Positions 1-44,431 of a stretch of DNA of 64,000 bases are shown piece by piece; positions within the stretch are counted from its first letter, which is position 1; every line of letters starts with the position of its first letter. The notes below the pieces were generated by a model that was not told the DNA's origin, searched no databases, and was given only the letters and a program-made list of their open reading frames with translations. This DNA comes from Macrolepiota albuminosa (Eukaryota; Basidiomycota; Agaricomycetes; Agaricales; Agaricaceae). The stretch is taken from NCBI GenBank assembly GCA_027475525.1, contig JAMWFC010000052.1, forward strand, positions 806,001-870,000. The letters are read 5' to 3'. The translations under genes were made by a program, and so were the position numbers.

Positions 1-222
1 CAAACACGCAACAAGAAGGACAAGATAGCCAAGCTCCCTTACAGATCCCTTGTCAGATGCCTATTATATATAGCAGTTGCAACTTGCCCTGACATCACCT
101 TTGCCATGCAGCAACTATCCCAGTTCCTTGACAACTACAATTGCACACACTGGAACGCTGGAATATGGCTAGTCAGATACCTCGAAGGCACCAGAGACCT
201 CAAACTTTGTCTAGGAGGACAG
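1..222 (+). pseudogene. Ty1/copia polyprotein fragment, left part of interrupted element
   Basis: Frame 1 is open to the gypsy insertion point and reads as the reverse transcriptase/RNase H junction of a Ty1/copia polyprotein, with motifs such as LPYRSLVRCLLYIA, CPDITFAMQQLSQF and VRYLEGTRDLKL. The frame resumes on the other side of the gypsy element at 12071 with SIVLQGFTDADWASCLDT, the start of the copia RNase H, once one copy of the 4-bp target duplication is dropped. The element runs off the left edge, so its 5' LTR, gag, integrase and most of the RT are outside the window. The copy is dead: it is interrupted, and the right part carries further stops. Confidence 0.85.
219..222. repeat. 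Target site duplication of gypsy insertion (left)
   Basis: ACAG directly precedes the TGATGACG start of the left LTR and is repeated at 12067-12070 directly after the right LTR end CCTATCA. A 4-bp duplication fits a Ty3/gypsy integrase and shows this is a single insertion, not a chimera of two solo LTRs. Confidence 0.75.
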
Positions 223-1247
223 TGATGACGCCCAAAGTTTGGTCAGTAACAAATGTAGCAAAAGTGTTACCGTACCAAGAGTTTGCGTTGGGCGCGCTAT
301 AAGTGATTTGAGGAGTCCCAGGCAGGTCCCAGAGAACGCGGTGTTACCGTACCAAGAGTTTGCGTTGGGCGCGCTATAAGTGATTTGAGGAGTCCCAGGC
401 AGGTCCCAGAGAACGCGCCTATGAAAAAGGGGTAAAGTCGGTAAGGGAGTCGGCAAGTGTAAAGCGCTAAAGTAAAGCGCTTAGGGAAGAAGCGGTAAGT
501 GCACACGGCAATGTCAGCGGCAAGAGCACGGTAAGCTTAGCGAAGTTCTAAGCGTCGATAATGCCTGCCGTAGTTGCAAGGCGCGAAGGTGTCGAAAGTT
601 GGCAAGAGTCTGCAACTGCCGACGAGTTCGACGTTGCCGACCGTAACTGAGCTCTGGAGCGTAAAGGGGACTGAAAAAGTGGGAGCAGGAAACTCTGGTC
701 TATTCGTCCGATGGGTATGTACAAGTCGGTAAGTACTTTTTATACTACAATGAGTTCACCGTCGCCAGTGGCCAACCATTGCCAAAGTGCGGTAAACTGG
801 AAAATTTCATAGGGGTAGCTCCAACGGTTTCAGATCCCTACCGTCCATTCAAGACCCTTGGCGCCACCAGGCGGCAGATCGCGGTGCTAAATCATCAATC
901 CATCACCCTTCTGTCTGTCAGAACACCTAAGCGACGTTGGGCGCCAAATCGAGACGGTAAGCGGTGTCAGACGCCAAGGTCAAACGCCAAGCTGTCCGTC
1001 AGTTTTTGATAGATCATCAAGCTTCTCGCTAAGCGCTGTCGTCAGTGACTGATGCCATCTGTCAGTTGTCATTCCTGCTGCCGTCGGCGCTATCATTGAT
1101 CGGATCTGCTTCTTGCCGTGCGCGGCCATCGGGAATGGCTTAAAATGGGTAGAACGCGTGCGCTAAGTTTGGAACGAGTGCAGCAAGGTTTCCGGAGCTG
1201 GTGCCGAGCCTGCCGTTGATGCGCCTAACCTGTATAGGGTCCTATCA
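223..1247 (-). repeat. Left LTR (3' LTR) of gypsy element
   Basis: It starts TGATGACGCCC and ends GTCCTATCA, matching 11042-12066 almost base for base. It contains an exact 77-bp tandem duplication (264-417) that the right LTR lacks, while the right LTR has a different 77-bp duplication, so both happen to be 1025 bp. Excluding the duplication I count 20 copies of CGSYAA/TTRSCG here. Confidence 0.93.
264..417. repeat. Exact 77-bp tandem duplication (no. 1)
   Basis: 264-340 is repeated exactly at 341-417. The partner LTR has one copy. Probably an assembly join artefact (see findings). Confidence 0.9.
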
Positions 1248-1258
1248 TCTCCCCCCAA
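1248..1258 (-). other. Polypurine tract of gypsy element
   Basis: Read on the minus strand, TTGGGGGGAGA lies directly before the LTR start TGATAGGACC. This is the expected plus-strand primer position and fixes the element's orientation. Confidence 0.75.
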
Positions 1259-1416
1259 CTGAAAAATTGACTGTCCTCAGTCACCAAATAAGGCTACCAT
1301 TACCGCTTTTGTGACAGGTGGTCCGTGCGTTCTTGAGATTTTGTTTATAGTTCTGGCGCGTGAGTTTGGACTTCGTTTCTTCTCCCCATCTTTTCCTGGC
1401 GCTCAATAATAAAAAT

Positions 1417-3815
1417 ATGTCCTTCCGTATTCCAACTCCGCCCCCCGTTCCGTCTCAGGCTGCTCAAGAAGCCGCCTACGCATACATCGCTAAGGCAAAT
1501 AATTTCGTTAGGCGCATCGAGGGTGTGGGCGCGGAGGCGCCTTCAAATTTGGTCATCGCGGTTATGAAGTTATTGGAGCGTTGGTACGAGGTCCGTGTCC
1601 TTGGCGTAGGCTGGGATAAGGAGATTGAGGTGCGGGAGTGGTGCTGAGCCCGCTATGTGGATAATTGTGGCGCGGAGTGGTTAGCGCCGTTTTCTCGTTT
1701 TGTAAGTGGTTTTAGCCCTTGCCGTGTCGCTAGCTGATCGAGTTGCCAGGCGCCTCCTCCCGTCCCTACCATCGAGGACGAGTTGGAGGATATTTTATCT
1801 GGTGCCTTGCCGATGATGGTAAGCGCTCCCGTGCCTGAGTAAGTATCTCTGATTTTTGATTTCTGACTTAGCTGTGGTCTGATCTGTCTCCCCATAGCAA
1901 ACAAGAGGTGTTAGCGCCTCTTGCTAATTTGCAGGTGGACGCTGAGATGGCGGCTATCCGCGAGAGTGTGCTGGAAGAGGCCTCCCGTGACGCCAAGGAG
2001 AGGACCAAGGCCTTAGAGGAGCGAGAGGTCGTTGGCGAGACCCTGGTAGCCAGTGAGAGGTCGCCAATTGCAAGGAGGCAGGTGTCTGGTGGGAAGGATT
2101 CCCGCGCCGGTAGTGCCCAGAGCCCAGCACTGCCGGCAAGCACATCGGGCTCTCCGGTCAAGCCTGGCAAGACTTTAAAGAAGAAGGTAAGTTTGTGCGT
2201 TGTTACCGCTGGCGCTTATCGTTTATCCCATTCTAAGTCTCGCAAGGCTGCCGCCCCTCGTTACACGGTAAGTTCGTTACGCCAAGGTACTTTCCCTGCT
2301 AACCGACTAGCTGACAGGCGCCAACGCAAACTTCCTTCAGCGATGCAAAGCTGAAAGGTTTGCTGGTCGCGCGACGAGATGAGGCAGTTTTGGATGAGGG
2401 ATTGGAAGCGGGAGTGGTCTTGCCGGAGATGAAGGACAAGAAGACGGCAAGCCCAGCGGCAAGGCAGGAGTTCAAGGACTCCCAAGGGGCGGTAAGCACT
2501 TTGGCTTTCCTTGCCGCTTTCGTTAACATTCTTGTAGTGCGACAAGTGCTGGGCCGACAACGACCCAGAGGGGTGTTGGTACCCCACTGGTGGCCAGCCC
2601 TGCTACCGGTGCGGTACGCTTAAACGGGCCTGCACTCTGGACGGCGCTAAGAGTCGCGAACGCGGTGGAGCTCCCGACGCGGTAGTGGAGCGCACTTTCA
2701 AGCGTGCCGTCCTCGTCAAAAGGGCGCGGGAGTTCGTTGAGGGGGAGAGGAAGAAGCAGGCCGCTGGCGACGCGGCGACGATTAGCAAGAGTTCCCTGGC
2801 GCTGCCGACGCGTCAAGGGGACGAGTCTGCAACAGTCGGCAACCGTGGCGCCGGAGAGCGCCAAGGGACTACGGTCCCTTCAAAACGACAAGTCTCCTCG
2901 CCCGCCAAAGGGAAGGGCAAGGCTAAGCGCGCGCGGGTAGTAGAGTCTCCTCCCCCTACCCCCGAGGACGTGGAGATGGAGGAGCTGGAGAAGGCGCTTG
3001 CTGCCAGTCGCCTACCGGTCAGGGATTCGGAGGCTGGGCCAAGTAAGTTGCTCTCTCCCATTCACCTGAGGGGGCCTTCTCTGCCGGCCGCCGACGAGGA
3101 CGACGCGGTAATGGACCCGCCGCCAAGGGAAGAGCCTCAGGAGGCGGGACCGATGGTGGCGATACCAAGGGGCGAAGGGAGCCCCTCGGCAATGGCTGGC
3201 GACGAGGACGCAGATGGGGAGCCAGACGAGACCTTGGCGACCCAGCGCGAAGGTGACGAGGAGGAGGCCCCCGCCAAGGAGACGGTAGCGGGAGAAAGAG
3301 AGGGAGCGGAAAGAGTCGCCAGGGAGGAGCCAGAGTGGCACTGGCTACCTTCCTACGGTAACGTTGCCCCTTGGGAGGTATCGGACCCCGAGGACGTTGC
3401 CAGATTGGAGCCGAGGCGCCCAGTAGTCGCCAGAATCAACCCCGCCTGGACCCCCCATCCTGAACCGACGGTCACTGGCGACGCCTTCCAATGGCTGGGG
3501 CAAGACCTCGTCTACCCAGTTATTGCGCTTAATCCCCGCGATGTGCTGGAGAGGTATTCCCAGAGGGCGGCAACGATGGAGTCGGCAATGGGGTGGGAAC
3601 GAGAACGCGTCTGGGGCCAGCTCATGGCGCTTCGCTTGCGCTATTCTAACTTGGGTCGAAGTCTACATGTCCTTCGCGATTACCAAGCGGATTGCCAAGC
3701 CACCCTGGACTGGCAAACGGCTAACAATATTTTGCCTGGCGACCTCCTGCCTCTTCGCGATTCCTCCTTGCCAGCTACAGACGACTCCCTCTCCATGGAC
3801 GACGTTAGCGAGTAA
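1417..3815 (+). CDS. Antisense extra gene of gypsy element: Zn2Cys6-like Cys cluster, disordered acidic protein
   Basis: The gene runs opposite to gag-pol, between integrase and the 3' LTR. It has several exons with canonical junctions: introns near 1839-1895 (gtaagt...catag), about 2188-2239, 2269-2319 and 2491-2537 (gtaagc...ttgtag). Joining them keeps one frame to the stop at 3813-3815. The first exon, from ATG 1417, is less certain. The fourth junction opens a cysteine cluster (about 2538-2633) spaced C-x2-C-x8-C-x8-C-x2-C-x6-C, which fits fungal Zn2Cys6 binuclear clusters; basic residues (TLKRAC) lie in its second half. A Lys/Arg-rich stretch (KGKGKAKRARVVES), a long acidic Pro-rich disordered part and a conserved-looking C-terminal region with WERERVWGQLMALRLRYS follow. 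I infer a nuclear DNA-binding protein. The function is unknown to me. A 77-bp duplication overlaps the stop codon. Confidence 0.7.
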
Positions 3816-3929
3816 ACGGACCTTAGCGTAGATAGGCCGTTTATGTAAATAATACAGACGACTCCCTCTCCATGGACGACGTTAGCGAGTAAACGGACCT
3901 TAGCGTAGATAGGCCGTTTATGTAAATAA
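3776..3929. repeat. Exact 77-bp tandem duplication (no. 2)
   Basis: 3776-3852 is repeated at 3853-3929. It covers the last codons and stop of the antisense gene, so a second stray copy of the C-terminus follows the real one. Confidence 0.9.
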
Positions 3930-4318
3930 TTTTTTTTGTCAGCATATATTATTTTCTTGCCGCCACTTTTTCGAGTGAAAGGATAAGTCCCAAAACCTGA
4001 GTTAGCGCAACAGCAGAGAGCCAATAAAGTGAAGTAAAGAGAGAGCAAGCGGCAAGCATTCTAAGATAAGTTTTTAGCGATAGGAGTAGGATGAGAGGGA
4101 CTTAGACAAATTTTGAGAAAAAGGGAAACGCTCAGTAAGTCATCATAGCGAAAAACCCTTGGCGAGAGTTGCGCAATGCGCTAAGCGCTGGCGACGCGCT
4201 AGCGCTGCGACTTGACTAAGTAAGGAAATGTCTGTTGGATATGGTACAGTAAGTATCGGCAAGAAAGATAAGTAAGGTAAGTAATAGAAAGAAAGGGCTT
4301 ATCAATTTATAGTCTTTT
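3930..4318. other. Spacer between convergent integrase and antisense gene
   Basis: No ORF is supported here. The stretch is A/G-rich, with GGTAAG-like words and several CGSYAA motifs (for example TTGGCG, CGCTAA and CGGCAA around 4160-4265). It must hold the 3' ends of two convergent transcription units. Confidence 0.5.
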
Positions 4319-5791
4319 CTAATCGTTTTCTTCTTCTTCAACTAGGGTCGGCAAGTCATCATCGTCCAATAATTCAGTTTTTTCAAGTTCTCTAAGCTTG
4401 GCGGTGTCGATATCTAGCGCTTCAAGCGGCAAGTCGATTTGTTCCCTGGCAAGATACGGTAATAGGCAAAAAGCGGCAACAGGTCGATGTAGCACTGAAC
4501 CATCTAATTCACAGAGCACGTAAGCACCACCACGGTTACGAGAGATAACTACCAAAGGTCCTAGATAGCGAGGGCGCATTTTCTTGTTGTATGAAGTTTC
4601 GATTTTGGAGTTGCGCATAAGCACTAGCGCGCCCCTCGGAAAGTTGTAATCCTTGATAGTAGCGCTATGGTCGGTCTCAAATCGTAGGGCTGCTTGGCGA
4701 CGGGCGCTAAAGACTACCTCGTAGAGTCGCTCTAAATCTTCTTTCCTTCGTTGGAGGTCAATAGCTTGTCTGGCGATCAGGTCGGTAGTCGCTAAGATAC
4801 TGTTGGGGGCTGGCTGAAGGTAGGTCGCTTCTATAATGTCAGCAGGGAGTAAAGGATGGGTGCCAGTAGCCGCGTAATAGGGAGAACAACCCATGCGCTT
4901 ACGAATAGTAACTCTTTCCGACCAGAACACTGAATAGGTCGCTTCGCTCCAACGAGACTCGTCGCCATCGACTGCCTTGAAGAGCGCTTGCCGAACGTCA
5001 AAGTGGGGTCTCTCTACCAGGCCATTGGCGCGCTTGTTGTAGCCAGATACTCGAATGTGGTGAATGTTGTATTTCTTGGCAAGGTATGTTAGCGCTTTGA
5101 TGATGGGCGCACCGTTATCCGTGACGATTTCTCTTAGCGCTCCCCAACGGCAGATGACGTCCTCAAATAGCCACTTGGCGACCGCCTCCGTGTTTTCTCT
5201 TTGGAGCATTCAAAATTCAGGCCAGTGGATTAGCGAACAACGACCTTGAATGATGTACTTGTAGCGACCAGACTTGGGCATATGCATGGTGTCGACGTAA
5301 ATTTTGCTGAAGAGGGGAGCTGGCGTTGCAACGGTTGGCGGGATGAGCACTTGGCGCGTTTGTTGAATTTGGCAGAGGTGGCAAGTCCTGATGTACCAGG
5401 CGATGTCGGCACTAGCGTGTGGCCACCAGAATCGTTCTAGCAGAGAGGCTCGGGTAGCGTACAGACCTCTATGTCCTAGTTCGTCATGCATGGCGCGCAG
5501 GACTCGTAAGCGACTTTCTGGCTTGATGATCAGCTTGTGAGCGCCATCTCGATTTCGTCGCCAAAGTCTGTTGTCGGTAAAGAAGAAATGGGTAGCATAT
5601 CGGATAAAAGTAGCGTATTGTTCGTCGGTAAGGTCTGGGGGTCGCTTAAGGTCTTGTATCCATTGCTTGACTACTAACAGGCGACTGTCTTCCGCCTTTG
5701 CCTTGGCAGATCGGGGAACGGCATCGTAGGTCAGGTTTTTGCTGTCTTCTCTTAGCGACTGGGGTTCCTGTACGACTTTTACTGGAGGCAA
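4319..5791 (-). pseudogene. Gypsy integrase, one in-frame TGA
   Basis: The N-terminal half (5210-5791) has the HHCC zinc-binding pattern (HDELGH, then CHLCQ) and the first catalytic Asp (IYVDTMHM). The C-terminal half (4319-5209) has VTDNGAP and the RANGLVE glutamate of the DDE core, then a GPLVVISRNRGGAYVL domain and an acidic tail. The two halves share a frame and are separated by one TGA (5210-5212), where family members normally have an Arg codon after WPE-F/Y. CGA to TGA is a single CpG deamination. There is no chromodomain. The copy is inactive unless the stop is read through. Confidence 0.85.
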
Positions 5792-6262
5792 GTCTTGTCC
5801 AAGGATGCTTGCCGTGTAGAATGTGAGGGGTGCGCTAAAGATCTCGGGGTGGTAAGGGACAATGGGATGTAGAAGGATGCTGGTAGGCTGTTGCCGTCAT
5901 AGTAGGGGGATTGGCTGTTGTATGAGGTGCACAAAACCATGTAAACGGTCGATCCAGTCCTCGAAATCGCTATCAGCCTGTGGGTCCACTGCCGGGTCGC
6001 CAGGCTGCCGTGGTCGCCTAGAGAGTCCATCTGGGCCGTGGAAAGAGCTCTTGACGTGTACCAGCTCAAAGTGAAACATGAGGATAGCGACTACCCAACG
6101 GTTCATGCTAGCGGACGGCTGGATATCGGGATTCTGCAGCATGCCTTTGATGTACCTAGCGTCGACTTCAACAATAAGGTTGCGCACGCCAATCAAATAC
6201 ATCTTTAGCGACCGGAAGGCTTTGAAGAGTCCATAGAGCTCTAGCTTAGGCTGACTGTAGCG

Positions 6263-6416
6263 AGATTCCCGGTCGTTTAGCGTGATGGACCCAAAGCGGT
6301 TGTAGCGTCGCTGTTTCCGATTGTCGCTAAGGCACTGGCAGATTCCCGGTCGTTTAGCGTGATGGACCCAAAGCGGTTGTAGCGTCGCTGTTTCCGATTG
6401 TCGCTAAGGCACTGGC
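6263..6416. repeat. Exact 77-bp tandem duplication (no. 3)
   Basis: 6263-6339 is repeated at 6340-6416 inside RNase H. 77 is not a multiple of 3, so it breaks the frame. Confidence 0.9.
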
Positions 6417-7998
6417 ACAAGAAGTAGCCAACGGCAATGTACGAGGTGTCCACCGCCAAGATGACAGGATCGGCAGAGCTATAGTCGATGGGAACTAGGG
6501 GCTTGGCGTCTTGTAAGGCTTTTACTAAATCTCGTTGGGCAGTAACCTGGTCTGGCCCAAATTCGAAGGGCTCGTTAGCGCGGGTGAGTCGGTTAAGAGC
6601 ATGTGCGCGATGGGCAAAGTTTTTGACGAATATCCTGAGAACGCCAACAGTACCAAGAAAGGCGCGAACTTCAGATAAGTCGCGGCAAGGACCCCATCGC
6701 TCCAGGAGTGCTAAGCGAGACTCGTCGGGAACACGACCGTCGGGAGTGCAGATGTGACCGAGTATTTTGAACCTTGGCGCGCATAAGAGGAGTTTGTGGC
6801 CGCTAAAGGTACCACCGCTATACTTCATACGTTGGAGAACTCGATTGAGCAGCTGGAAAAACTCCCATAGCGCTAAGCGAATGTTGGAGTTGTCGGGATG
6901 GGTCGCCAGTAAGTTGTTTACGAGTCGCCAGTCTTTGGGGCCTTTGACGCCAACGTCATCAATGAAGCTAAGGACATGGTGCGGTATCTCGGGTTGGAGG
7001 ATGAAAGTGATGTCGTCATGAAATATAGGGACTGAGTTTGTCCAGCCCATCGGCAAGGTAACTAGGCGCAAGGCGCCAAACGGAGTTTGAAAGGTGGTAA
7101 GGTCTCGGGAAGAAGGGTGTATTAAGCGTTCATCGTAGCCAACGTAGAGATCAAGGGTGGCGCCACAAATGCGCCCGGCAAAGGACTCGGCAAAGTGGTC
7201 AGGGAAAGGCGGTACGCCAGAGTGTCGTATAGTAACTCTATTCAGCGGCTCGAGACTGTGAACTATGCGTAGATTGCCGTTCTTTTTGAGGACGCAGAAC
7301 CAACGGGAGCGGTAAGAGCTATTGGAGGATTTGTAGACGCCAGCCTTGATCTTGGTCCTAATGATTTGGCAGACCTCGGCTTCGATCCCAGGCGATAGCG
7401 GTCGGTTATGCTCAGTCCACGGTACGTGAGGAATGGTCGGGATAACAACAGGCGGGAAGAAATCTGTATGTAGACTGCCGCGTTCTGAGTCCTCCCAAGC
7501 AAAGGCTTTGTCTTGCTTAGCGACGAGATCGGTAAGGACGTTCAACTCATCTTTGGTCAAAAATCCTGTGTCGTGCTCCTTGGCGAACTGCTGCTGGCGT
7601 TCTGTGGTAAAACGTCCCGTGGGCTGAAAGGGTGGCGGATTCGGTGATAAGGTCGGCATGTCGGCAAGAGGGTCGCCAATGATCTGGCGCTCGTTTCTAA
7701 AAGTCTCGGGAGAGTGCGTAGCGACGGGTTTTGTTTTAAGCGCAACTGGCTTATATTTCTTTTTAACTTGTACCCCTTTCCTTTTGGGAGCGTTAGCTTG
7801 GTTATACACAGATGTGGAAAGGGGAACTGTAGCCTGAGGGGCGGCAAGTCCAAGAACGGCAGGAGACGAGGCTCCGGGAAGGGTAGTGAGATACGTATCG
7901 GTAGACGCAATATTTTGAAATGATTCAGAAGCGGTAAGGTACAAGTAGGCAAGAGAGGAGTCAGTAATGTTTTGATTTTTCTGGGAAAGCTCTGCGTC

Positions 7999-8152
7999 GG
8001 TAGTGGGTAAAGTAGTTAAAACATCTTGGTCAAGAAAAGCAGTAGACATAACCGTTACAAGACCAGTTGAATGGTGGTAGTGGGTAAAGTAGTTAAAACA
8101 TCTTGGTCAAGAAAAGCAGTAGACATAACCGTTACAAGACCAGTTGAATGGT
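7999..8152. repeat. Exact 77-bp tandem duplication (no. 4)
   Basis: 7999-8075 is repeated at 8076-8152, between the protease and RT domains. Confidence 0.9.
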
Positions 8153-8194
8153 CATATTCCAGCGTTAGCGCTACATCTCCGTGATCGTTGCCAA

Positions 8195-8884
8195 TCACCT
8201 CCTCGATGGTCTGTGAAAACACCGGTGGGGAGGCTCGTTGGCGTGTTGGTCGGTAAACTCCGGGGGCTTAGCACGGGCGCCTTTTCGTTGTCCCCTAGGG
8301 AACGTTGGCACCGTTCGTCGGATTCCGGAATTTGGGTCGCTAATTGTGAGGGTCGTTTCCTCGTCGGTAACTGTCTTGACGACTGATCGCGCCAAGACGT
8401 CAAAGGGTCTGCCGAGTAGTAAGTCGTATGCTGGTGAACGTAAGATGTGTATTTGAAGATAAAACGTGATGTCGCCAAGGGTGCACGGCACATTCTTGGC
8501 GAGTCCTAGGGATCGGTCTACTGTGCCGTTAGCACTCTGCATGTTTAGTATAACCGTAGGGTCGTAAATGAGGCCTAGATCGTTAGCGACTTCAGCTGCC
8601 ATTGAAATGATCTGAGACCCGCTATCCACAATTGCCTCTACCTCGTGCTTATTGTCTACGGTTAGCGCGACTGAGCGGATAGCGTGCAATTCTTGAGCGA
8701 CGGTAAGGATTGCGGGGTCCTCTCCATGGTCCACTGACCTAAGGTAGGTCTCCACTGGGTCCACAGAGGTGGCGTTAGCGATGGTGTCGGCAGGAGAGTC
8801 TTCAGCGTCCAGCGAGTCGACGGTAACAGAAAAACCAGGGAGCGCGTCGTCGAGATCCTCGACCTCGGCAACGGTTGTCGCCAA
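8195..8884 (-). CDS. Gypsy aspartic protease region
   Basis: The segment contains the retropepsin active site in VEAIVDSGSQIISM (D-S-G) and the downstream flap/psi-loop region AYDLLLGRPFDVLA. It lies in the same frame as Gag, two codons after the Gag TGA, so Gag and protease are separated by a single stop. The last about 15 codons (after about 8240) look out of frame with the linker that leads to RT, so a small indel may exist there. It begins with a TTG in the ORF and is translated as part of Gag-Pol, not alone. Confidence 0.75.
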   Translation of the reverse strand: MATTVAEVEDLDDALPGFSVTVDSLDAEDSPADTIANATSVDPVETYLRSVDHGEDPAILTVAQELHAIRSVALTVDNKHEVEAIVDSGSQIISMAAEVANDLGLIYDPTVILNMQSANGTVDRSLGLAKNVPCTLGDITFYLQIHILRSPAYDLLLGRPFDVLARSVVKTVTDEETTLTISDPNSGIRRTVPTFPRGQRKGARAKPPEFTDQHANEPPHRCFHRPSRR

Positions 8885-8890
8885 GGGTCG

Positions 8891-10507
8891 TCAAGGAGTG
8901 ACTGCCGTCTTGACTTGGTTGCGGACATCCGGGGCAATACTACAAAGCTCTTCAACTGATAAGGTAACATTGGTTTTCATGATGCGGTTAAAGACGTGGT
9001 TGGATTTCTCTATGTCAAATATTGGCGCGGTTGGACGGTAGCCACCCTCAGGACGTTTCTCGGGAGCGGCAAAGTTTTGTTGTGCGGGAGCATGATAACG
9101 GTCGGGAATCCCTGAGTAGGGATGGAGAGGCAGCAAAGGCGGTTCGGGAGCGGTAGCAGACGACAATGGTTCGGGAGCAGTAGCAGGGGTAGTGGCAGGC
9201 GGTGCGGCAGGAGCAGGTGTCGGTAACTTGCTAGCGGGAGGCATTGGCTTATATCCTTTGAGAGGTTGTTTGGGCTGCTTAACTTCAACCCCATCAAAGA
9301 CCTGATTCTTAAGCGAATCCAACTCCTGTTGGAGCTTGGCGATACGTTCTTCCCGCGAGAAAGTAGGATGGTCGCCAACGCTGTTGAAGTGTAAGACCTC
9401 GTGAATCATCTGCTGTTGAGTCGCCTGTTCAGGGTCAGGGTTGGCGTTGCCAGATAGCGTGCCGGTAACAATTTGTCCTGGGTTGCGCCTATGCCACTCA
9501 TCAACTCGCTCCTGGAAGGACTTCTTGTCTGGGTAGTTGGGAATGATGGCGCCAGTAGTGAGAACTATCTTGCCGTCGATAGCCCATCGAATTCTCCCTT
9601 GCCGAATATAATTCTCTAAAGTTGCGCAGCGTCCTCTCGTCATGGTGTGGCCAATTTCCCCACAGAAGTGGCAAGGGCCAGGTGCGGGTACGTTAGCGGG
9701 TCGGTTAGCAGTCAGGTTGGTGGTAATCATAGTTTCAATACGCGTCATAGCGGAAGCGACAGCGGCGGTAATAGCAGCATTGAGCTCCTCTTTCTTAACG
9801 AAGTCGGCAACAGGAGGCGGGATGGGAATGATACCGTTAGTTCGCTCAGGTGGTGGGCTCGTCCTAGCGCGCTGCAGTCCAACGCCAGTGTCCGTTCCCT
9901 TGAGAACCCATTTACCGGCTTCAAAGACGTCGGCAACGTTATAGGGCTCGTCAGGGTGATGGGCCTGGTGAACTATCTCTAGGCGACGAGCAATGCGAGT
10001 CCAAAGCGAAGTCGGGATGCCTTGTTGGAATAGGCGACGTTCCTCGTTAATATATAGCTTGCCGTTCTGCAGAAGCCACCTAGCGATTTTCTGGAACTCG
10101 CGGTAATACGTAGAGAATGCGCCAAGAGATGATGTGCCACTGTCGAATGATTCCTGTACTAGTTTCTGGAGCTTGTTTACCGTGTATCGGGTAGCCTCCT
10201 CTGCGCCAGGGTACAGCTGGATCACTGCCGTCTTCCAGTCCTCATACGAAGCGCCTTGGGCTGGAACTGGCGGTGCGGCAGGGACAAAGGCGGCAAACTC
10301 GGTCAAACCTGTCCATGTCTCTGCCGTGTCATATGATACATATCTTGCCGCGTACTCCTTCATCTGTGTGTGGTCGGTAATGTTACAATCCCTAAACAAA
10401 TACTCCAATTCCTTGAAATACTGGGAGAGCTCCCGTGGCTTGGACTCGTCCCATTTTGGTGCCGAGAAGTGGTTGCGTGGCGGCATGCGCTGGACTTGTT
10501 GTTCCAT
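8891..10507 (-). CDS. Gypsy Gag with CCHC-like zinc knuckle
   Basis: It has an ATG start at 10507 and 538 residues. The N-terminal capsid-like part (KELEYLFRDCNI, YVSYDTAETWTGL) resembles retrotransposon Gag. A zinc knuckle variant CHFCGEIGHTMTRGRC lies in the middle and is followed by a Pro/Ala-rich tail. The frame ends with TGA at 8891-8893, and the protease continues in the same frame. This could be a readthrough stop or a mutation of CGA. Confidence 0.85.
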   Translation of the reverse strand: MEQQVQRMPPRNHFSAPKWDESKPRELSQYFKELEYLFRDCNITDHTQMKEYAARYVSYDTAETWTGLTEFAAFVPAAPPVPAQGASYEDWKTAVIQLYPGAEEATRYTVNKLQKLVQESFDSGTSSLGAFSTYYREFQKIARWLLQNGKLYINEERRLFQQGIPTSLWTRIARRLEIVHQAHHPDEPYNVADVFEAGKWVLKGTDTGVGLQRARTSPPPERTNGIIPIPPPVADFVKKEELNAAITAAVASAMTRIETMITTNLTANRPANVPAPGPCHFCGEIGHTMTRGRCATLENYIRQGRIRWAIDGKIVLTTGAIIPNYPDKKSFQERVDEWHRRNPGQIVTGTLSGNANPDPEQATQQQMIHEVLHFNSVGDHPTFSREERIAKLQQELDSLKNQVFDGVEVKQPKQPLKGYKPMPPASKLPTPAPAAPPATTPATAPEPLSSATAPEPPLLPLHPYSGIPDRYHAPAQQNFAAPEKRPEGGYRPTAPIFDIEKSNHVFNRIMKTNVTLSVEELCSIAPDVRNQVKTAVTP

Positions 10508-10577
10508 GGCGACGGTGGTAACGAGTTCGGTTAGCGGTAGTGGGGAAGGAGTTCTAGAAATTGGCGACGGGGTAAGA

Positions 10578-10731
10578 GAAATGAGTTGAGAAAGAGGCGT
10601 TAGCGGAGTAATGGGGGTGATTGGTTGCGGTACGGTAAATGGCGACGCTAAGGGGAAATGAGTTGAGAAAGAGGCGTTAGCGGAGTAATGGGGGTGATTG
10701 GTTGCGGTACGGTAAATGGCGACGCTAAGGG
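10578..10731. repeat. Exact 77-bp tandem duplication (no. 5)
   Basis: 10578-10654 is repeated at 10655-10731 in the gypsy leader. Confidence 0.9.
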
Positions 10732-10798
10732 GTCGTCGGCGCTATAATCGAGGGAATGCGGGAAGAGATCAGGAAATGCGTCTACAGTGGCGTTCTGT

Positions 10799-10952
10799 AG
10801 TTCCTGGGCAAGAGAGAGACCCGGTAAGGCACCAGGTGGTTGTGGAGTTGATGGGTGGGAAGGAGCTATGCCTTCAGTTCCTGGGCAAGAGAGAGACCCG
10901 GTAAGGCACCAGGTGGTTGTGGAGTTGATGGGTGGGAAGGAGCTATGCCTTC
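10799..10952. repeat. Exact 77-bp tandem duplication (no. 6)
   Basis: 10799-10875 is repeated at 10876-10952 in the gypsy leader. Confidence 0.9.
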
Positions 10953-11020
10953 TGCTGACTGGTCTAGCAGGCGGCGCCTATGCTGAAGACGGGTTTCTGG
11001 CGGAATTCTGCTCTAGAGAT

Positions 11021-11038
11021 CCCTTGCGGTGGGCTCCA
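11021..11038 (-). other. Primer binding site of gypsy element
   Basis: On the minus strand TGGAGCCCACCGCAAGGG starts 3 nt inside the 5' LTR. The leading TGG pairs with a tRNA CCA end. I cannot name the tRNA. Confidence 0.55.
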
Positions 11039-11041
11039 ATT

Positions 11042-12066
11042 TGATGATGCCCAAAGTTTGGTCAGTAACAAATGTAGCAAAAGTGTTACCGTACCAAGAG
11101 TTTGCGTTGGGCGCGCTATAAGTGATTTGAGGAGTCCTGGGCAGGTCCCAGAGAACGCGCCTATGAAAAAGGGGTAAAGTCGGTAAGGGAGTCGGCAAGT
11201 GTAAAGCGCTAAAGTAAAGCGCTTAGGGAAGAAGCGGTAAGTGCACACGGCAATGTCAGCGGCAAGAGCACGGTAAGCTTAGCGAAGTTCTAAGCGTCGA
11301 TAATGCCTGCCGTAGTTGCAAGGCGCGAAGGTGTCGAAAGTTGGCAAGAGTCTGCAACTGCCGACGAGTTCGACATTGCCGACCGTAACTGAGCTCTGGA
11401 GCGTAAAGGGGACTGAAGAAGTGGGAGCAGGAAACTCTGGTCTATTCGTCCGATGGGTATGTACAAGTCGGTAAGTACTTTTTATACTACAATGAGTTCA
11501 CCGTCGCCAGTGGCCAACCATTGCCAAAGTGCGGTAAACTGGAAAATTTCATAGGGGTAGCTCCAACGGTTTCAGATCCCTACCGTCCATTCAAGACCCT
11601 TGGCGCCACCAGGCGGCAGATCGCGGTGCTAAATCATCAATCCATCACCCTTCTGTCTGTCAGAACACCTAAGCGACGTTGGGCGCCAAATCGAGACGGT
11701 AAGCGGTGTCAGACGCCAAGGTCAAATGCCAAGCTGTCCGTCAGTTTTTGATAGATCATCAAGCTTCTCGAGACGGTAAGCGGTGTCAGACGCCAAGGTC
11801 AAATGCCAAGCTGTCCGTCAGTTTTTGATAGATCATCAAGCTTCTCACTAAGCGCTGTCGTCAGTGACTGATGCCATCTGTCAGTTGTCATTCCTGCTGC
11901 CGTCGGCGCTATCATTGATCGGATCTGCTTCTTGCCGTGCGTGGCCGTCGGGAATGGCTTAAAATGGGTAGAACGCGTGCGCTAAGTTCGGAACGAGTGC
12001 GGCAAGGTTTCCGGAGCCGGTGCCGAGCCTGCCGTTGATGCGCCTAACCTGTATAGGGTCCTATCA
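11042..12066 (-). repeat. Right LTR (5' LTR) of gypsy element
   Basis: It starts TGATGATGCCC and ends CCTATCA before the second ACAG. It differs from the left LTR by about 12 transitions and by carrying its own 77-bp duplication (11691-11844). Promoter elements must lie here but I see no clear TATA box. Confidence 0.93.
11691..11844. repeat. Exact 77-bp tandem duplication (no. 7)
   Basis: 11691-11767 is repeated at 11768-11844 inside the right LTR. The left LTR has one copy. Confidence 0.9.
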
Positions 12067-12603
12067 ACAGTCCATAGTATTGCAAGGATTCACAGATGCT
12101 GATTGGGCAAGCTGCCTCGACACACGGAGGAGCACAAGTGGCTACACCTGGTCACTGGGTACTAGAGTGATCTCCTGGTCCATTCAAAAACAGAAAACCA
12201 TAGTGACGTCATCCTGTGAGGCCAAGTACATGGCTGCCTATGGATCCACCCAAGAATGTGTATGATTACGCATGCTTTTGAAGGCAATCAGCTGGGATTT
12301 CACAGCAAAGCTGACCACCCTATTCTGCAATAACAAGGCCATGATCTCCCTGTCTGAGGACCCCACGGCTCATGCGTGAGTAAAGCACTTCGACATCAAG
12401 TACCACTTTATTTGCAAATGCACACAAAACAGAGAAATAACCATCAAATACGTAAATACCCGCAACAACATCACTGACATGTTCACCAAGCCCCTACCAA
12501 AGTCTCTATTCCTCCGACTACGCCAGATGCTGGGACTAATCCAAGACCCTACGATCCATGCGTGAGGAAGAGTTTGACTGGTTATGCACACAGTAAGGAG
12601 GAG
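12067..12603 (+). pseudogene. Ty1/copia polyprotein C-terminus, right part of interrupted element
   Basis: This continues the copia RNase H (GFTDADWASCLDTRRSTSGY, SSCEAKYMA) to the C-terminal signature IKYVNTRNNITDMFTKPLPK. At least two TGA stops interrupt it: one after STQECV, where the family has Trp (TGG to TGA), and one after DPTAHA, where it has Arg (CGA to TGA). A polypurine run AGTAAGGAGGAG directly precedes the LTR start at 12604. The first four bases are the target duplication. Confidence 0.85.
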
Positions 12604-23586: not shown

Positions 23587-26500
23587 ATGGCCGACGAGCT
23601 CGAAGGAGCAACACAGCGCCCTGCATCCATTCGTTCCGTAGCTAGCAAGTCTAGCTGTGCAAGCGGTGTAAGCCTTACGCGCCAATCCAGGACCAGGAAG
23701 AGGTCCAAGACCGTGACCGGTGCATCGACGTGTTTTGAAAGCGCGCCGAAGAGCACAGTATCCGAACTAACTATACCTTATCCTAGCGGCAATTACACTA
23801 GAGAACCTCTTCCGACTTCCCCGTTCATCCAACCGGCTCTAGGCGCGCCTCCCCGCCCGAAACGGTCACCTCGGAGGGATACCTGTGCAGTGGCTCAGAC
23901 CGCCCCACTGGCAGTTGGTAACGGTGTAGAAGTGGGTGAAACTTTGCGGCAGGATGAGAAGCTCAGTTTGGCAGTTGAGGCAAGCCGGACTCATCGCGAT
24001 GTTACCAAACTCGTACGTCTTTGATCTCCTGAACCTTGACTAACTGGCTCAAACTTTTGACTATGTAGATTAAGCAGACCTCGGGTGTGCAAATTCAGCC
24101 AACGGCCTCCCATCCAGAACCTCCATTGTCGGCGTTCTCTAGGGATCCAGAAATAACAGGAGTTGATCCTGCGGCTGTCAACCTTCGGGACTCAGTATCG
24201 ACTCAGCTGTCGAGGCAGTCCTCATCTATATACCCTCCATCTAGTTCGACCACCTCTGAACCAGATTCGCCGCCATCTCCACAATCAGTGGTCTACGAGA
24301 ACGACAGACATGATTCTTCATATGATCCCGTGGTCAATGAAACGCAAATATATGACAGGGACGATGTCTCTTATCGTCTTCAACTGCTGGTCAACAACAA
24401 CTATTTCCTCCCACCTGCGCACTCGAAACCATCCGCAGCGGACCTTGCAGCCATGGAGAAAACTGTTCAGAAGAAGCCATCGACTCCGACTTTTTTTCAG
24501 CGGCTCCGTGGCAAATCAAAATCAAAACCGACGACTCCGACTGGATCATCCCCAGGCTTCGATCCTGCTGGGCCAGCATTGCGAACTCCTGCCGACTCTA
24601 TTACCACTGCTCATCTACGGCCACGGCCACCACGAGGGTCCTCCCAATTTCAACGCGGGTCTCCTGTTGAAACTCGCACAGGCAGGGTGGTTGTGGTCCG
24701 CGAAAAGATGGAAGATGTAGCAGTCGCTGCGAAGCAAGCCGAGCAGGAAATGAAAGCTAGAGCATTGCGACGTGATCAAGGTTCCCCGAACGGGCGAAAA
24801 ACATTTCCTGATGTCATTGACCCAACGGATGTTGTTGACCTGCCGCCGCCGTCTTCAAATTATCCGTTCGCCGTACAGGCCTCAGCGTTATGTGGATTGG
24901 GTGTCCAGGAGTCTCTAGGTGCAGCATTACTTGCCGATCATCTACCACCTCCACAAAGTCCTGGTATGTCGATCTCTGACCGTGACGATCACTGGAGAAA
25001 GGCTTTATTGCATGAGGCTGTCCATCACTCGCTGGATAACACGCCTGATACGTCGTTTTCGATGCTACAAGGAACATCAACACCTTTAACTTCGCCGCTG
25101 GTAGAGCGTTCTCAGTCTTCCCGAGTACTTGAGACCCACTCAACATCATTGCTGGATCAGCGGATTATCAGTGATTCGCGGTTTTCAGGTACACCGCTGT
25201 CTATATCTAGGAAGAAATCCAGTCAAAGTGCCATTTTAACTTCCTCAAAGTCTAGGTCCAGCCGACAAGGTAGCAGCAAGCTTTCACCGAGTGATGTCTC
25301 ATCCGGCGTGCCGCCCCTTCGTTCGACAACACCTTCTGAGCCACTCACTCCACTCACGCCTGCTCCTCGAAAGCATGTCCTCAATCTCTCGCATTCCACA
25401 TCACAGAATGAACTAGAACACCATGGTCAGTCCGCGGAAGGATCATCACGTGCAACTTTAAGGAAAGCGGTGTCTTCCCCCAGTCTTTCGGAGGCATACG
25501 GGCCTGGTGCTCTGAGTTTGGATCCAACGCCACCCCCGCTGTCTACACCCACTCAGTCATTTGTGTCCCTGAATGTATTGCAGGAAAAGCCAAGCCGGAT
25601 CACGTTACAATCCTTTACGACTGAGCACGATCAAGAGTTGGCTGATGGCGGTAGTACTCCACGAAGATCTTTTGCGATGTCGGCCTTGAATGGTCGTGCA
25701 TCTTTGTCGTCTGAATATTCACAACCATCACCAACAATGTCAGCCTTCCGTGACGCACCGCCTGACATGAATGGGGCCACTATAAATCAAACACGATGGC
25801 AACATACTGCAGATCATGAAATTGCCTCATCTAACGAAAGCTCTGTTGCTCGATATTCGGCCATGTCGCCTCCGCCGAGAATATCCTCTTCTTTAGCATA
25901 CTTTGCACTCTCCCCACCACCCCGACCATCACCTCCGAACTACCAAATTCGTTCAACTCCTTCTCCTCACGTCTCCGAAGGTAGCGATACTCCTCAACAA
26001 CCTTTGACATCGCTCACTGATGATATCCCAATAATGATAAATGCCCCGGAACTTACTCCTCCCTCATTTCCCCTCTCACAACGGCGCGGTCATCCGCTTG
26101 GAATGCAACTCTCTCTCGAAATACCCCCAACCGATATCACTGTTGCAATCCACTCAGCCCCAGGACCGTCATCTCCGACATCTTTCTTTGACGCTATCCA
26201 GTCCCAGCCTAGCGCCATGGACGATCTTGAATCTTCCGATGAAAGTGACGAAGGAGCCGATGTCACTCAGCTCAACGCAGCTAATCCCGACAGGTCCGAC
26301 CCTTACAGTCGCTCCATATCCGCTACGCCGGCCACCTCTCGGCCTTCTCTGATGCGGCTTGGAAACCATTCGACTCCGTATGTAAGCCATATCAGTCGTG
26401 AAATGCATCGTCCGTCAACCGGAATGAAGGATAAGAAGCCCATTGGAAATATTCCCGTACGTGTCCCCTTCTTCCGAGATAGAGCAGGGAAAAGCGATCA

Positions 26501-26777
26501 AGGTCACGGTCCTCCGGTGTCTTCTTTCGACTTTTATAAGTACACACAACAAAGTGATACTGCAATCGAGGAGCCCAGGAGTGCAGGCATTACAGGACGA
26601 CGGTCGACGGTTGGGAATGTATCGGCATGGAAGCCATTGAATCCAAAGGCGCAGGAATCTCTCAAAAAACTAGACGGAATGCTCATTCAGCATATGGCAG
26701 CTGAAAGGGATACTATCAAACGTATAGCAACCACCGCTCGATCTAATAGCACTATACCCGTCGAGCGTGGGCCTTGA
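23587..26777 (+). CDS. Conserved basidiomycete Ser/Pro-rich protein, unknown function
   Basis: Exon 1 is 23587-24012 (ATG, MADELEGATQRPASIRS) and exon 2 is 24069-26777. The intron gtacgt...gtag is phase 0, and the product is about 1044 residues. The protein is mostly low-complexity Ser/Pro/Thr. More ordered islands are DDVSYRLQLLVNNNYFLPPA near residue 230, a possible helical segment VVVVREKMEDVAVAAKQAEQ, and a C-terminal helix PKAQESLKKLDGMLIQHMAA. I recognise the first island as typical of uncharacterised agaricomycete proteins, but no named domain. It is probably cytoplasmic or cortical and phosphorylated, given its composition; that is inference only. Confidence 0.85.
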
Positions 26778-35634: not shown

Positions 35635-38600
35635 TCACATAATTACACACCACCGACTCTTTTGCTCCTTAGAAGTGGGCTGAGGTCCCTTGTTTGCTTC
35701 ACCTTCGGTCGGGGTATATTGTTCGGCCACTGAAGGGCCTTCATCGATCGAGGGATCTCTCGCAGCGGCAACTTTTTGCGCAGTGAATTCTCCTTGAACA
35801 ACCTCGAAGAAGGGCCGACTTTCATCCACGGTCTTCGAAGGTGAAAACCAGCCTCCCGGGAAGAAACGAGAAGAGCTAGTTGACTCTAGCCTGGAACGGT
35901 CTGTAGCAGGAGAAATGGTGTCCAGGGAGGTCGAAGAACCATTAGCGGTCGTCTTTGCGTCCGAAGTCGAAAGACAAAGACCAGAGGGTCTAACGAGATC
36001 TCTCAGCATCACAACATATTACAGTGAAACAAAGCTTACTTTGACTCATTGAGTTGCTCGGCAAGAGACTGTTCAGTGGTAGGGAACACTTCGCGGACTG
36101 GGTTCACTTCCATGTTCTCTGACAATGGTTTGGTGGCCGTTGTCAAGACAGTGTCAAGTTTCTTGTCGTTAGATATATTCCGAGAGACCGTGTCCTGCTG
36201 ACTATCGTTTGTGTCCTGATCAAGTGGGGCTGGTGAGAGTTTGTTTGACTCTGCCGAAATCTCTGGGGTGGTGTTTGGCTGGCTATATACCCGTGGGCTC
36301 TTTGTTAGCTCCTGATTCATGTTGTCTGGGTTTTCAAGAGATTCTGATGCGATAGTAGCTGCGATAGGAACTTCCTGCAATGTGATGAGACGTTTGGTAA
36401 GTGCAACAATTTGGGGCAAAAATTACCTCTACTTGATCGTCATCAACCAACGAAGTGGAGACGACCGAAATCGCTTTGACTGTGGAGGCTTCAGGTGCTT
36501 CTTCTGCCATTTTTGTTACCACTTCGTCCTTTGAGATTTCGACACTAGGGGTCTAGAAAGAAACAGGGTGAGATGAATAGACGCAGAAACACGATTGAAA
36601 GAACCTCATGATCCCGAGATTCGACTTCGGCCACATGATTGGTTAGAACAGTCGGTGTTTCAACGACAGGAAGTTCCAATTCAACATCTTTTGGTGCGCC
36701 AGGTACGGTAGTGGCAATCGCTTCTTTGTCGAGAGGATTTGGACGTTCCTGAGCAGGGCTGCCTTGAACGACGACGGAATATGATGGCACCCAAGGAGAT
36801 GCTGGCCTCTCCTCAACATGAGGGGCTTGTCCTTCCGAGACTTGTTCAGAAACAGTAACGGAGGGCTACAAGGCGTCAAAATTAGAAACAAGGACTAAAA
36901 AATGAACTTACCACTACTACATCTTTGCTAGAGTCCAAAACAAGACGGGGAACTTCAATACCTGTGACAGGCATGGCAGCCGCGGCAAGATTGTTGTTGA
37001 CATCCTCTACTTGAGGGACATGCACTTGGCTGTTTTGTTCCAAGTTGGCGGCAATCGCTTCGGTTAGACTTACTTCCGGGTGTGCGGAGTCGAAAGTAGC
37101 TTGAGCAGAGGCAACTGTTGCATCAAGACGGTGCTGGGTTTCAACCACAGTGATACAAGGAGACACAACCTCCACAGGTGCCTCCCGTGTCTCGCTGAAA
37201 GCTTTGGCGGGGACCCCTGGATTCTGCGCTTGTTGGCCAAGAGGAACAGCTTCTTTGTCTGCAAACTTGATCTCCGAGTCAACTGCTTCATCTTCATTTG
37301 CAACAAGGGGTTCTTCCTTCTGAGGCGTACTCTCCTGAACAAGGACGGCTTGAGTAGGAAGAGGGCTACCCTGAGAGTGCACGGAATATGAAGGAGTCCA
37401 AGGGCGTGCAGACGGTTCTGGCGCATCCGTTTCGAGTTCCACGTGATATGGGTGCGAGCTACCTTGAGAATGTGTTGAATACAAGAATGTGGAAGGTTCT
37501 TGTAGTGGTCCTTCAGATATTTTCTCTGCCTCAGCTGGCTCAACGAGCAGCGATTGATCGATGACCAACTAGGTGAGGTAAATTCCCTGCATAATTCCAT
37601 AGAATTTGTCAGGCTTACCTGGGGAGTTGAAATCAGAGGTTGTTCAACATCTTTCTGGATATCTTCCACATCGACTGTAACTGGTACCAGAGGCTCCCGT
37701 GCTGGTTCTTCAGCTGATTTCTCTGCCCCAGCTGGTTCAACAAGCAATGATTTACTGGCGACCAACTAAATGAAGTAAATTCCCTCAATCCTCTAACAGA
37801 AATTATCGGCTCACCTGAGGAGTTGAAATTACATCCTTCGAGATCTCTTCTACATCGGCCGCTACTGGTATCGGAGACTCTTGTACTGGTCCTTCGTACG
37901 ACTTCTCCGCTTCAGCTGGCTCGACGAGTAACGATTGATCGATGACCAACTAAAGAATGTAAATTCCCTCCGTCCTTCAACCAACAGAATTTACTATGCT
38001 CACCTGAGGAGTTGAAATGACGGGTTGCTCGACATCCTTCAAGACCTCTTCCACGTCGGCTGTTACTGGTATCAGAGGCTCTTGCATTGGTACTTCGGAT
38101 GATTTCTCTAATTCAGCCGGTTCAACCACCAACGAATGATTGATGACCGACTAGGTAAGGTAAATTCCCTCCATCATATAACAGAATTTGTTAGGCTTAC
38201 CTGAGGAGTTGAGACGACAGGTTGCTCGATATCCTTAGACACCTTTTCTGCGTCAGCTATCACTGGTATCGGAGGCTCTTCTATCTCAGCTGGTTCAACA
38301 AGCAACGGTTTATCGATGGCCAACTAAATGAGGTAAATTCCCTCCATTCTGTAACAGAATTTGCCATGCTTACCTGGGGAGTTGAGATGGGAGGTTGCTC
38401 AACATCCTTCGAGACCTCTTCCACGTCGGCTTTTACTGGTACACTGTGTTCTTGTATTGGTTCTTCGATCGATTTTTCTGCCCCTTGTTCAACGAGTAAC
38501 GATTTATCGATAACCAACTAAATGAGGTGAATTCCTTCCATCCTTTAACAGAATTTATCAAGTTCACCTGAGGAGTTGAGATGAGAGGCTGTTCAACATC

Positions 38601-43795: not shown

Positions 43796-43826
<31 letters not shown>

Positions 43827-43861: not shown

Positions 43862-44431
43862 AGTTACTGCAAAGAGTCCAAAGGTCTACTTCAGCTAGGA
43901 CGGACGACGGTTCTCCTGGGATGGAACTTTTCGGTAAAAATAACGCATCACGTGTCTGTGTATTATCTAATTAATTGTCAATGGGGACTTTGAGCCGGGA
44001 TTCCGAGGGGCAAGGGAAGCTTATGCGTTCGTCCGGCGGCCCTACGGCCCCACATCATGGACATTCTGGAAGGGGACAATGGTGAAGTTATTTTACTCTC
44101 CCCTCTGTGCGGAGCAGCTCTTACATCTCATCCCTTATGAAAAAAAAGTTATGTAGTCCGTCAGCCACGGGCGCGCTTGAAATCAGGAACAGACCACCAT
44201 CACGTGCCCAGTCCACTCCAAACGCGCCACCTCACGTGCTCGCGCTCGCGCGTTTACCTCTCCAAGAAAAAAAAAAGGTCATTCACAAAATAGATTGCGT
44301 GTATATGTCCGATACGTATCGTAAAAACAGAACAGAAAAAAAAGAAGAATCTATATCAAGATATATCTGTATGTATGTGCGTACGTGTGGGCAACAGGAC
44401 TGATGAGAGCCCCGAGCCAAGTAGTATCCAA
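43862..44431. other. Intergenic, CaaX gene promoter and GPI gene 3' side
   Basis: Pyrimidine- and A-rich stretches. No gene is recognised. Confidence 0.4.

What the first reader, a model, noticed from the sequence alone, without database searches (positions are those of the whole stretch)
223..12066. Gypsy element saturated with a short motif CGSYAA, together with its own zinc-cluster gene: possible sequence-specific self-recognition or anti-silencing system
The 6-mers CGGTAA, CGGCAA, CGCTAA and CGCCAA (one consensus, CGSYAA; reverse TTRSCG) recur throughout the element on both strands: in LTRs, leader, spacer, the antisense gene, gag and pol. In the left LTR, excluding the duplicated 77 bp, I count 20 in about 950 bp, where about 2 are expected by chance with equal base frequencies. 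By eye, pol runs at about 12-15 per kb, while the 2.7-kb host exon at 24069-26777 shows almost none. Codon preference cannot explain it, because the LTRs and spacers are equally dense. The element also encodes an antisense, spliced protein with a cysteine pattern like Zn2Cys6, a class that often binds CGG triplets. Plant VANDAL transposons carry a comparable pair: VANC proteins bind short motifs that have multiplied in their own element and remove its silencing. I infer, without proof, an analogous self-targeting system in a fungal LTR element. Alternatives are a host-factor site or an unknown mutational or replication bias.
Basis: partly seen in the sequence, partly recalled or inferred. Interest (0 to 1): 0.92.

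Follow-up and report, generated by a model that had tools for sequence, protein, structure and literature searches.

The report
Retrotransposon saturated with its own motif
A jumping gene in a mushroom genome has filled its whole sequence, genes included, with one short DNA word, and it carries an antisense gene for a cysteine-cluster protein that may recognise that word; two other families in the same genome carry such a gene and a different word each, which suggests a self-recognition system that could protect the element from silencing.

Summary
CGSYAA occurs 183 times in the 11,844-bp Gypsy element, against 63 in the other 52,156 bp of the window and 272 in 200 kb of random stretches of the same genome. 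It exceeds all synonymous-codon shuffles in pol/gag and is also dense in the LTRs. Between close copies it is narrowly the best conserved of 3,869 same-shaped patterns, with Y drifting mainly C<->T: it looks selected. The host is Termitomyces or a close relative. A related family, F3 (zinc domain 48% identical), is enriched for GCGCTA/GGCGCT but not CGSCAA. A distant Gypsy lineage, Fx, with its own antisense six-cysteine gene, is enriched for TCCCGG. One Gypsy-like stretch without a detected cluster and a host exon show none of these. Best reading: each family carries sites for its own antisense cluster protein, working like plant VANC anti-silencing. Binding and anti-silencing are inferred, not shown. 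Differences from VANC: cysteine-cluster protein, sites dispersed through coding DNA, no tandem arrays. Weak points: the F1 and F3 words overlap, Fx enrichment is 2-3 fold, one control. The zinc gene of this copy has a premature stop that ten other copies lack.

The parts
223..12066 (-). Complete Ty3/Gypsy element (gag-pol sense is the - strand) with 183 CGSYAA sites
219..222 (.). Target-site duplication ACAG, left
12067..12070 (.). Target-site duplication ACAG, right
223..1247 (-). 3' LTR relative to pol: 948 bp plus one 77-bp duplication; 20 motifs in 300-1247
11042..12066 (-). 5' LTR relative to pol: 948 bp plus one 77-bp duplication; 11 substitutions in 948 against the other LTR; 21 motifs, duplication included
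1417..3815 (+). Antisense cysteine-cluster gene with introns; homology blocks to Termitomyces proteins at 1492-1695, 1872-2030, 2321-2494, 2538-2966 and 3375-3785; exon limits approximate
1645..1647 (+). TGA in zinc exon 1; ten other loci (11 aligned rows, two of one locus) have a sense codon here
2538..2633 (+). Six-cysteine cluster C-x2-C-x8-C-x8-C-x2-C-x6-C of the antisense protein
4319..5896 (-). Integrase region in two open stretches (Integrase_H2C2 above cut-off; SH3_Tf2-1 below cut-off)
6277..8106 (-). Reverse transcriptase / RNase H open frame (Pfam matches below cut-off; 77-bp duplications at both ends)
8195..8890 (-). Aspartic protease domain (above cut-off)
8891..10741 (-). gag open frame

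Best explanation
Each family carries, antisense to pol and between the integrase end and the 3' LTR, a gene for a zinc-cluster-like protein that recognises a short family-specific word; selection has multiplied that word over the whole element, coding and non-coding, so that the protein coats its own copies. The most likely benefit is sequence-specific anti-silencing: keeping the copies open and little methylated in a genome where much old sequence is CpG-depleted. It would work like VANC/VANDAL but with another protein class in an LTR retrotransposon. Shown: family-specific saturation beyond codon constraint, excess conservation of CGSYAA between close copies, and association of distinct antisense six-cysteine genes with distinct words in three families. 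Inferred: the protein binds the word, and binding counters silencing.
For: Saturation beyond composition and beyond all 1,000 synonymous shuffles in each gene tested; over all 6-mers the four CGSYAA variants are among the top five of F1 pol/gag. Conservation: in four disjoint close pairs 177 sites are shared and 72 are in one copy only (0.711), first of 3,869 patterns with at least 40 places (reverse complements counted; median 0.425; runner-up GCYKGG 0.710 on 69 places); rough p 9e-15 against pooled, overlapping CG-starting patterns. In close F1 pairs C, G, S, A, A change at 0.03-0.08 and Y at 0.108 where the average is 0.113; 71 of 76 changes at Y are C<->T, against e.g. 35 of 53 for CGSYAB, 28 of 51 for DGSYAA and 21 of 27 for CHSYAA (ordered pairs among four copies, not independent). 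Own-word matrix: F1 CGSYAA z 16.9 and 16.3; F3 GCGCTA z 6.6 and 6.6 with CGSCAA flat (0.8, -0.3); Fx TCCCGG z 5.2, 5.1, 6.8 with CGSYAA flat (-0.2, -1.9, 1.2); L023 and the host exon without excess (all z under 2). F1 and F3 zinc domains are 48% identical over 130 aa. In copies on C69, C84, C106 and C114 the RT is 97% but the zinc exon about 4 kb away only 75-76% identical to the window's, so the zinc gene diverges faster. Ascomycete XlnR and AraR prefer CGGNTAAW and CGGDTAAW (PMC6486530, passages), similar words. F1 CpG observed/expected is 1.02, and non-motif CpG goes to TpG no faster than other C in two F1 pairs (0.060 against 0.072); four stretches that I picked from the 20 random ones stand at 0.12-0.32.
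Against: No binding data. No Pfam Zn_clus match for F1 or F3; sub-threshold for Fx; the AlphaFold model of a Termitomyces relative is low-confidence in the cluster. Between F1 and F2 copies (about 24% apart) motif conservation is weaker: 898 of 1,590 kept (0.565), while the control GCSYAA keeps 112 of 195 (0.574); in close pairs GCSYAA also has 12 of 12 transitions at Y. The F1 and F3 words overlap: F1 is also enriched in GCGCTA (z 5.5, 6.5) and F3 in CGSTAA (3.4, 4.1) and CGSYAA (2.9, 3.0), so F3 is a shift, not a wholly new word; no excess conservation was seen among diverged F3 copies. Fx enrichment is 2-3 fold, its copies are 82-97% alike, and its top word CCGGGA is less conserved between L011 and L015 than the median pattern (7 shared, 15 not). 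Only one Gypsy-like stretch without a detected cluster served as control. VANC sites sit in tandem repeats in non-coding DNA (PMC5735166, passages); these do not. Normal CpG content may only mean young copies; in F2 pairs CpG>TpG is 0.076 against 0.070.
Confidence: 0.5

Rival explanations
1. The cluster protein binds the motif but serves as a transcription activator or a nucleoprotein factor of the element (cDNA, integration, nuclear localisation), not as an anti-silencing factor.
For: Relatives have basic stretches after the cluster and long C-terminal helices; sites occur on both strands; in the window element same-orientation sites are never 6-10 bp apart and peak at 12-13 bp (10 pairs, about 2 expected), as a protein footprint might give; also in L036 and at 13 bp in L032, not in L038 or L039.
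Against: A promoter activator would need sites in the LTR only, yet the genes hold 10-20 per kb. Packaging would not obviously need a different word per family.
Confidence: 0.24
2. A host DNA-binding factor reads the motif, and the antisense gene is unrelated to it.
For: No binding evidence ties gene and motif; conservation only suggests that something reads the motif.
Against: Three families in one genome have three words, each with its own antisense cluster gene; in 200 kb of random sequence dense CGSYAA was found only at three places, all F1-type LTR sequence or a related LTR-like insert.
Confidence: 0.16
3. A mutational or reverse-transcription bias, or codon and composition preference, generates the words without function.
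For: Fx is GC-rich and its apparent excess shrinks with a dinucleotide correction; the control GCSYAA is as well conserved as CGSYAA between F1 and F2.
Against: High density in LTRs, in the intron-bearing part of the zinc gene and in several reading frames; excess over codon shuffles; low change at the fixed positions in close pairs. CpG-bearing words would be lost, not gained, where CpG decays.
Confidence: 0.07

Closest known systems
VANC proteins of Arabidopsis VANDAL transposons (PMC5735166, passages; PMC10398659, abstract and section list)
   Same: Element-encoded factor, short degenerate word accumulated in its own family, word differs between related families
   Different: VANC words (YAGTATTAY; [quoted passage not shown] here a 6-bp word is dispersed through coding and non-coding DNA of an LTR retrotransposon, and the candidate protein has a cysteine cluster; binding and demethylation are shown for VANC, not here
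Fungal Zn2Cys6 regulators XlnR/AraR (PMC6486530, passages)
   Same: Six-cysteine cluster; sites CGGNTAAW/CGGDTAAW resemble CGSYAA
   Different: Host gene regulators with a CX2CX6C first half (recalled); here CX2CX8C and no Pfam match
TET/JBP genes of fungal DNA transposons (PMC12730594, passages)
   Same: Proposed counter-silencing gene carried by a fungal transposon
   Different: An enzyme, not a sequence-reading cluster; that paper found none in retrotransposons
Plant Retand LTR elements (PMC11963269, search listing only)
   Same: Title speaks of the long way from pol to the 3' LTR; the listing counts 24 uses of 'antisense'
   Different: Plant lineage; paper not read, so motif content unknown to me

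Membership tests
Ty3/Gypsy LTR retrotransposon | TG...CA LTRs, target duplication, gag, PR-RT-RH-IN order | tested here: met
   (RVT_1 and RT_RNaseH_2 below their cut-offs; gag-asp_proteas and Integrase_H2C2 above)
VANC-type anti-silencing system | Short motif multiplied in the element's own family | tested here: met
VANC-type anti-silencing system | Motif differs between related families whose protein has diverged | tested here: met
   F1 against F3, zinc domain 48% identical; one related pair only, and the words overlap in GCGCTA/CGSTAA
[quoted passage not shown]
   TRF finds only seven 77-bp duplications and one 17-bp pair; genes hold 10-20 per kb
VANC-type anti-silencing system | Protein binds the motif and lowers methylation | not testable with these tools
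   needs EMSA/DAP-seq and methylation maps
VANC-type anti-silencing system | Sequence homology to VANC proteins | not tested
   no VANC sequence was fetched or compared; likeness is claimed for mode of action only
Zn2Cys6 (PF00172) domain, F1/F3 protein | CX2CX6C first half and profile match | tested here: not met
   CX2CX8CX8CX2CX6C; no Zn_clus match
Zn2Cys6 (PF00172) domain, Fx protein | CX2CX6C...CX2CX6C and profile match | tested here: inconclusive
   spacing fits; Zn_clus E 5.4 and 1.8, and 0.068 for Termitomyces relative P0036, all under the cut-off

The most novel reading that the evidence does not exclude
Several fungal LTR-retrotransposon lineages each carry an antisense cysteine-cluster gene and have recoded their entire sequence, protein genes included, into sites for that one protein, so that every family bears an identity tag readable only by itself: a molecular self/non-self code among retrotransposons that keeps them unsilenced.
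Probability: 0.38. Interest if true: 0.93.

Novelty: new variant of a known kind. Interest (0 to 1): 0.85.

Why it matters
How a transposon escapes silencing without freeing its rivals is, to my knowledge, known mainly from one plant family. A second solution, in fungi, in retrotransposons and with another protein class, would suggest that sequence-specific anti-silencing evolves repeatedly, would help explain how Gypsy families persist in mushrooms with CpG decay, and would offer natural pairs of DNA-binding domain and target word for testing protein-DNA coevolution.

Tried and rejected
Codon usage and base composition as cause: rejected for F1. A splice-signal explanation (CGGTAAG resembles a donor; recalled): dropped because CGGCAA and CGCCAA are as common and both strands are used. 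RNA packaging signal: unlikely with both strands used, though the window element leans 111:72 and L036 76:52; L032, L039, L008 and L003 are near even. Solved structures and folding: no support. IMG/VR: two scans gave no relatives (the tool says near records may be left out). Excess motif conservation in F3 and Fx copies: not found. The gag line was in a wrong frame (34 stops) and is replaced. L027 was first used as a cluster-free control and proved to hold an old relative of Fx (85.5% to L040), so L023 and the host exon remain as negatives. L013 as a separate family: dropped, it is an F3 copy beside an F1 LTR; one six-cysteine pattern there I take for chance. On checking, the dense stretch of L015 that I had counted to F3 is an LTR-like insert nearer to the F1 LTR; F3 figures in the report use L035 and L041 only. 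An earlier count said eight 77-bp duplications; the count is seven. Literature searches (PMC open library; listings and abstract starts) showed no report of such a system in a fungal retrotransposon; that is no proof of absence.
Full report
What the window holds. The window is G000:C87:806001-870000 of a 100.1-Mb, 129-contig genome. The relatives found for the antisense protein are all named Termitomyces, the termite-farmed mushrooms (34, 86; about 8,000 candidates scored each time), so the host is Termitomyces or a close relative (inference; taxonomy). The finding is one complete Ty3/Gypsy element, 223-12066, with TG...CA ends and a 4-bp duplication ACAG, inside a copia-like RNase H gene. gag, protease, RT/RNase H and integrase lie on the - strand. 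The LTRs are 948 bp plus one 77-bp duplication each and differ at 11 of 948 positions. Seven exact 77-bp tandem duplications lie in the element, and copies of 77-79 bp recur in L035, which points to a k-mer artefact of assembly (inference); single copies may therefore be assembly chimeras.

The antisense gene. On the + strand, between the integrase end and the 3' LTR, a spliced gene (about 1417-3815) encodes a cluster C-x2-C-x8-C-x8-C-x2-C-x6-C followed by a basic stretch; Termitomyces proteins align in several blocks, and the model of one relative has helices at both ends. In this copy a TGA interrupts exon 1; the 11 other aligned rows (ten loci) have a sense codon there. The last exon gave 116 matches in the genome (99 of 1,237 candidates scored), many open over the full length. 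Pfam recognises no domain, and AlphaFold gave no confident cluster.

The motif. 183 CGSYAA in 11,844 bp, 63 in the remaining 52,156 bp, 272 in 20 random 10-kb stretches, Markov expectation 27. S and Y are truly two-fold: 48/43/47/45. In every gene the count exceeds all of 1,000 synonymous shuffles: zinc exon 13 (mean 3.6, maximum 9), integrase pieces 13 (2.8, 10) and 9 (1.3, 5), RT 23 (6.5, 15), PR 14 (3.0, 8), gag 23 (5.6, 12). In the random 200 kb only three places reach five motifs in 500 bp: L013 end and L026 are F1 LTR-type sequence, and the third is an LTR-like insert in L015 that shares its first bases and a 54-bp block with the F1 LTR.

Selection. I aligned 12 rows of the zinc region (11 loci; L034 and L036 are one locus). 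In four disjoint close pairs CGSYAA is shared at 177 places and in one copy only at 72 (0.711): first among 3,869 patterns of the same shape with at least 40 places (reverse complements counted; median 0.425), but closely followed by GCYKGG at 0.710 on 69 places; against pooled CG-starting patterns the rough p is 9e-15. In 12 ordered pairs among four F1 copies the six positions change at 0.076, 0.047, 0.030, 0.108, 0.045, 0.055 where the average is 0.113; the motif is kept in 578 of 706 cases, in control patterns in 48-73%; 71 of 76 changes at Y are C<->T. In F2 pairs 324 of 379 are kept, in controls 27-73%. Between F1 and F2 the advantage fades (898 of 1,590 kept; controls 29-57%, GCSYAA as high as the motif). 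So the word with its degeneracy appears to be read by something, on the evidence of close copies. Same-orientation sites are never 6-10 bp apart in the window element and peak at 12-13 bp (10 pairs, about 2 expected); L036 shows the same and L032 a peak at 13 bp, L038 and L039 do not.

Other families. F3 (L029-L031; L035, which contains L029; L041; 118 matches, 117 of 1,002 candidates scored) has a related pol and an antisense protein whose domain is 48% identical over 130 aa. Its top 6-mers are GCGCTA and GGCGCT in the L035 integrase frame (z 5.5 and 5.0; shuffle null 99% 4.4) and GCGCTA in the longest L041 frame (4.1, equal to the null 95%); the shorter L041 frames have other top words. Pooled over the L041 frames GCGCTA reaches z 6.6; CGSCAA is not enriched in either copy, CGSTAA mildly. 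Fx (L011, L015 right half, L040; 152 matches, 150 of 898 candidates scored) is a distant Gypsy lineage (RT 24-29% identical over pieces) with an antisense gene in L011 and L015 bearing CX2CX6CX15CX2CX6C; its 124-aa cluster exon shows no detectable similarity to the F1 protein. Its top 6-mer is CCGGGA/TCCCGG in the main frames of all three copies (z 4.6-4.9; null 95% 3.9-4.4), and z 5.1-6.8 when tested alone; CGSYAA is flat there. L023 (three frames, 8,754 bp; no cluster by pattern scan of its 10 kb) and host exon 24069-26777 show no excess of the seven patterns tested. So three families have three words, each with its own antisense cysteine-cluster gene. Limits: F1 and F3 words overlap, Fx enrichment is 2-3 fold, copies of one family are not independent, one cluster-free Gypsy-like stretch was at hand, and all data come from one genome.

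Methylation signature. F1 has CpG observed/expected 1.02, and its non-motif CpGs do not decay faster than other cytosines in two pairs (0.060 against 0.072; F2 0.076 against 0.070). Four stretches that I picked (of 20) have 0.12-0.32 with excess TG/CA, and the old F3 copy L013 has 0.54. This fits copies that stay unmethylated while active, but equally youth.

Interpretation and rank. Saturation, conservation between close copies and gene-word association are shown; binding and anti-silencing are inferred. I put about 0.50 on own-protein recognition with anti-silencing, 0.24 on own-protein recognition for another purpose, 0.16 on a host reader and 0.07 on bias. It works like VANC/VANDAL without being filed as a member: the tandem-repeat feature was tested and not met, and homology to VANC was not tested. 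XlnR/AraR sites CGGNTAAW/CGGDTAAW show that a fungal zinc cluster can read a similar word.

Noticed in passing
window 264-417, 3776-3930, 6263-6417, 7999-8152, 10578-10732, 10799-10952, 11691-11846; L035 177-332, 4105-4260, 6534-6688, 6784-6937: Exact 77-bp (77-79 in L035) tandem duplications at seven places of the element and at least four of L035: a likely assembly artefact that disturbs pol frames and could mislead annotation of this genome.
   Followed up: partly
G000 copies on C69, C84, C106, C114: In these copies RT is about 97% identical to the window's while the zinc exon some 4 kb away is only 75-76%: fast evolution or exchange of the antisense gene against a constant pol.
   Followed up: no
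L009, L016, L021, L028: Stretches with CpG observed/expected 0.12-0.32 and TG/CA excess: strong CpG decay in part of this genome.
   Followed up: partly
window 38000-44000: Several 5- to 7-mers (AGCTG, AGGAA, CAGCTTC) strongly over-represented; possibly a repetitive region.
   Followed up: no
L023 (three long frames on one strand, RT match): Gypsy-like stretch whose top 6-mers CTGCCC/CCTGCC stay inside the shuffle null (z 3.9, null 95% 4.4); could be another weak family word.
   Followed up: no
L015 about 375-1440: LTR-like insert inside an F3 copy, starting like the F1 LTR, carrying both CGSYAA (9) and GCGCTA (8); about 78% like part of L028.
   Followed up: partly
window 1-222 and 12067-12265: copia-like RNase H gene that appears split by the insertion.
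   Followed up: partly
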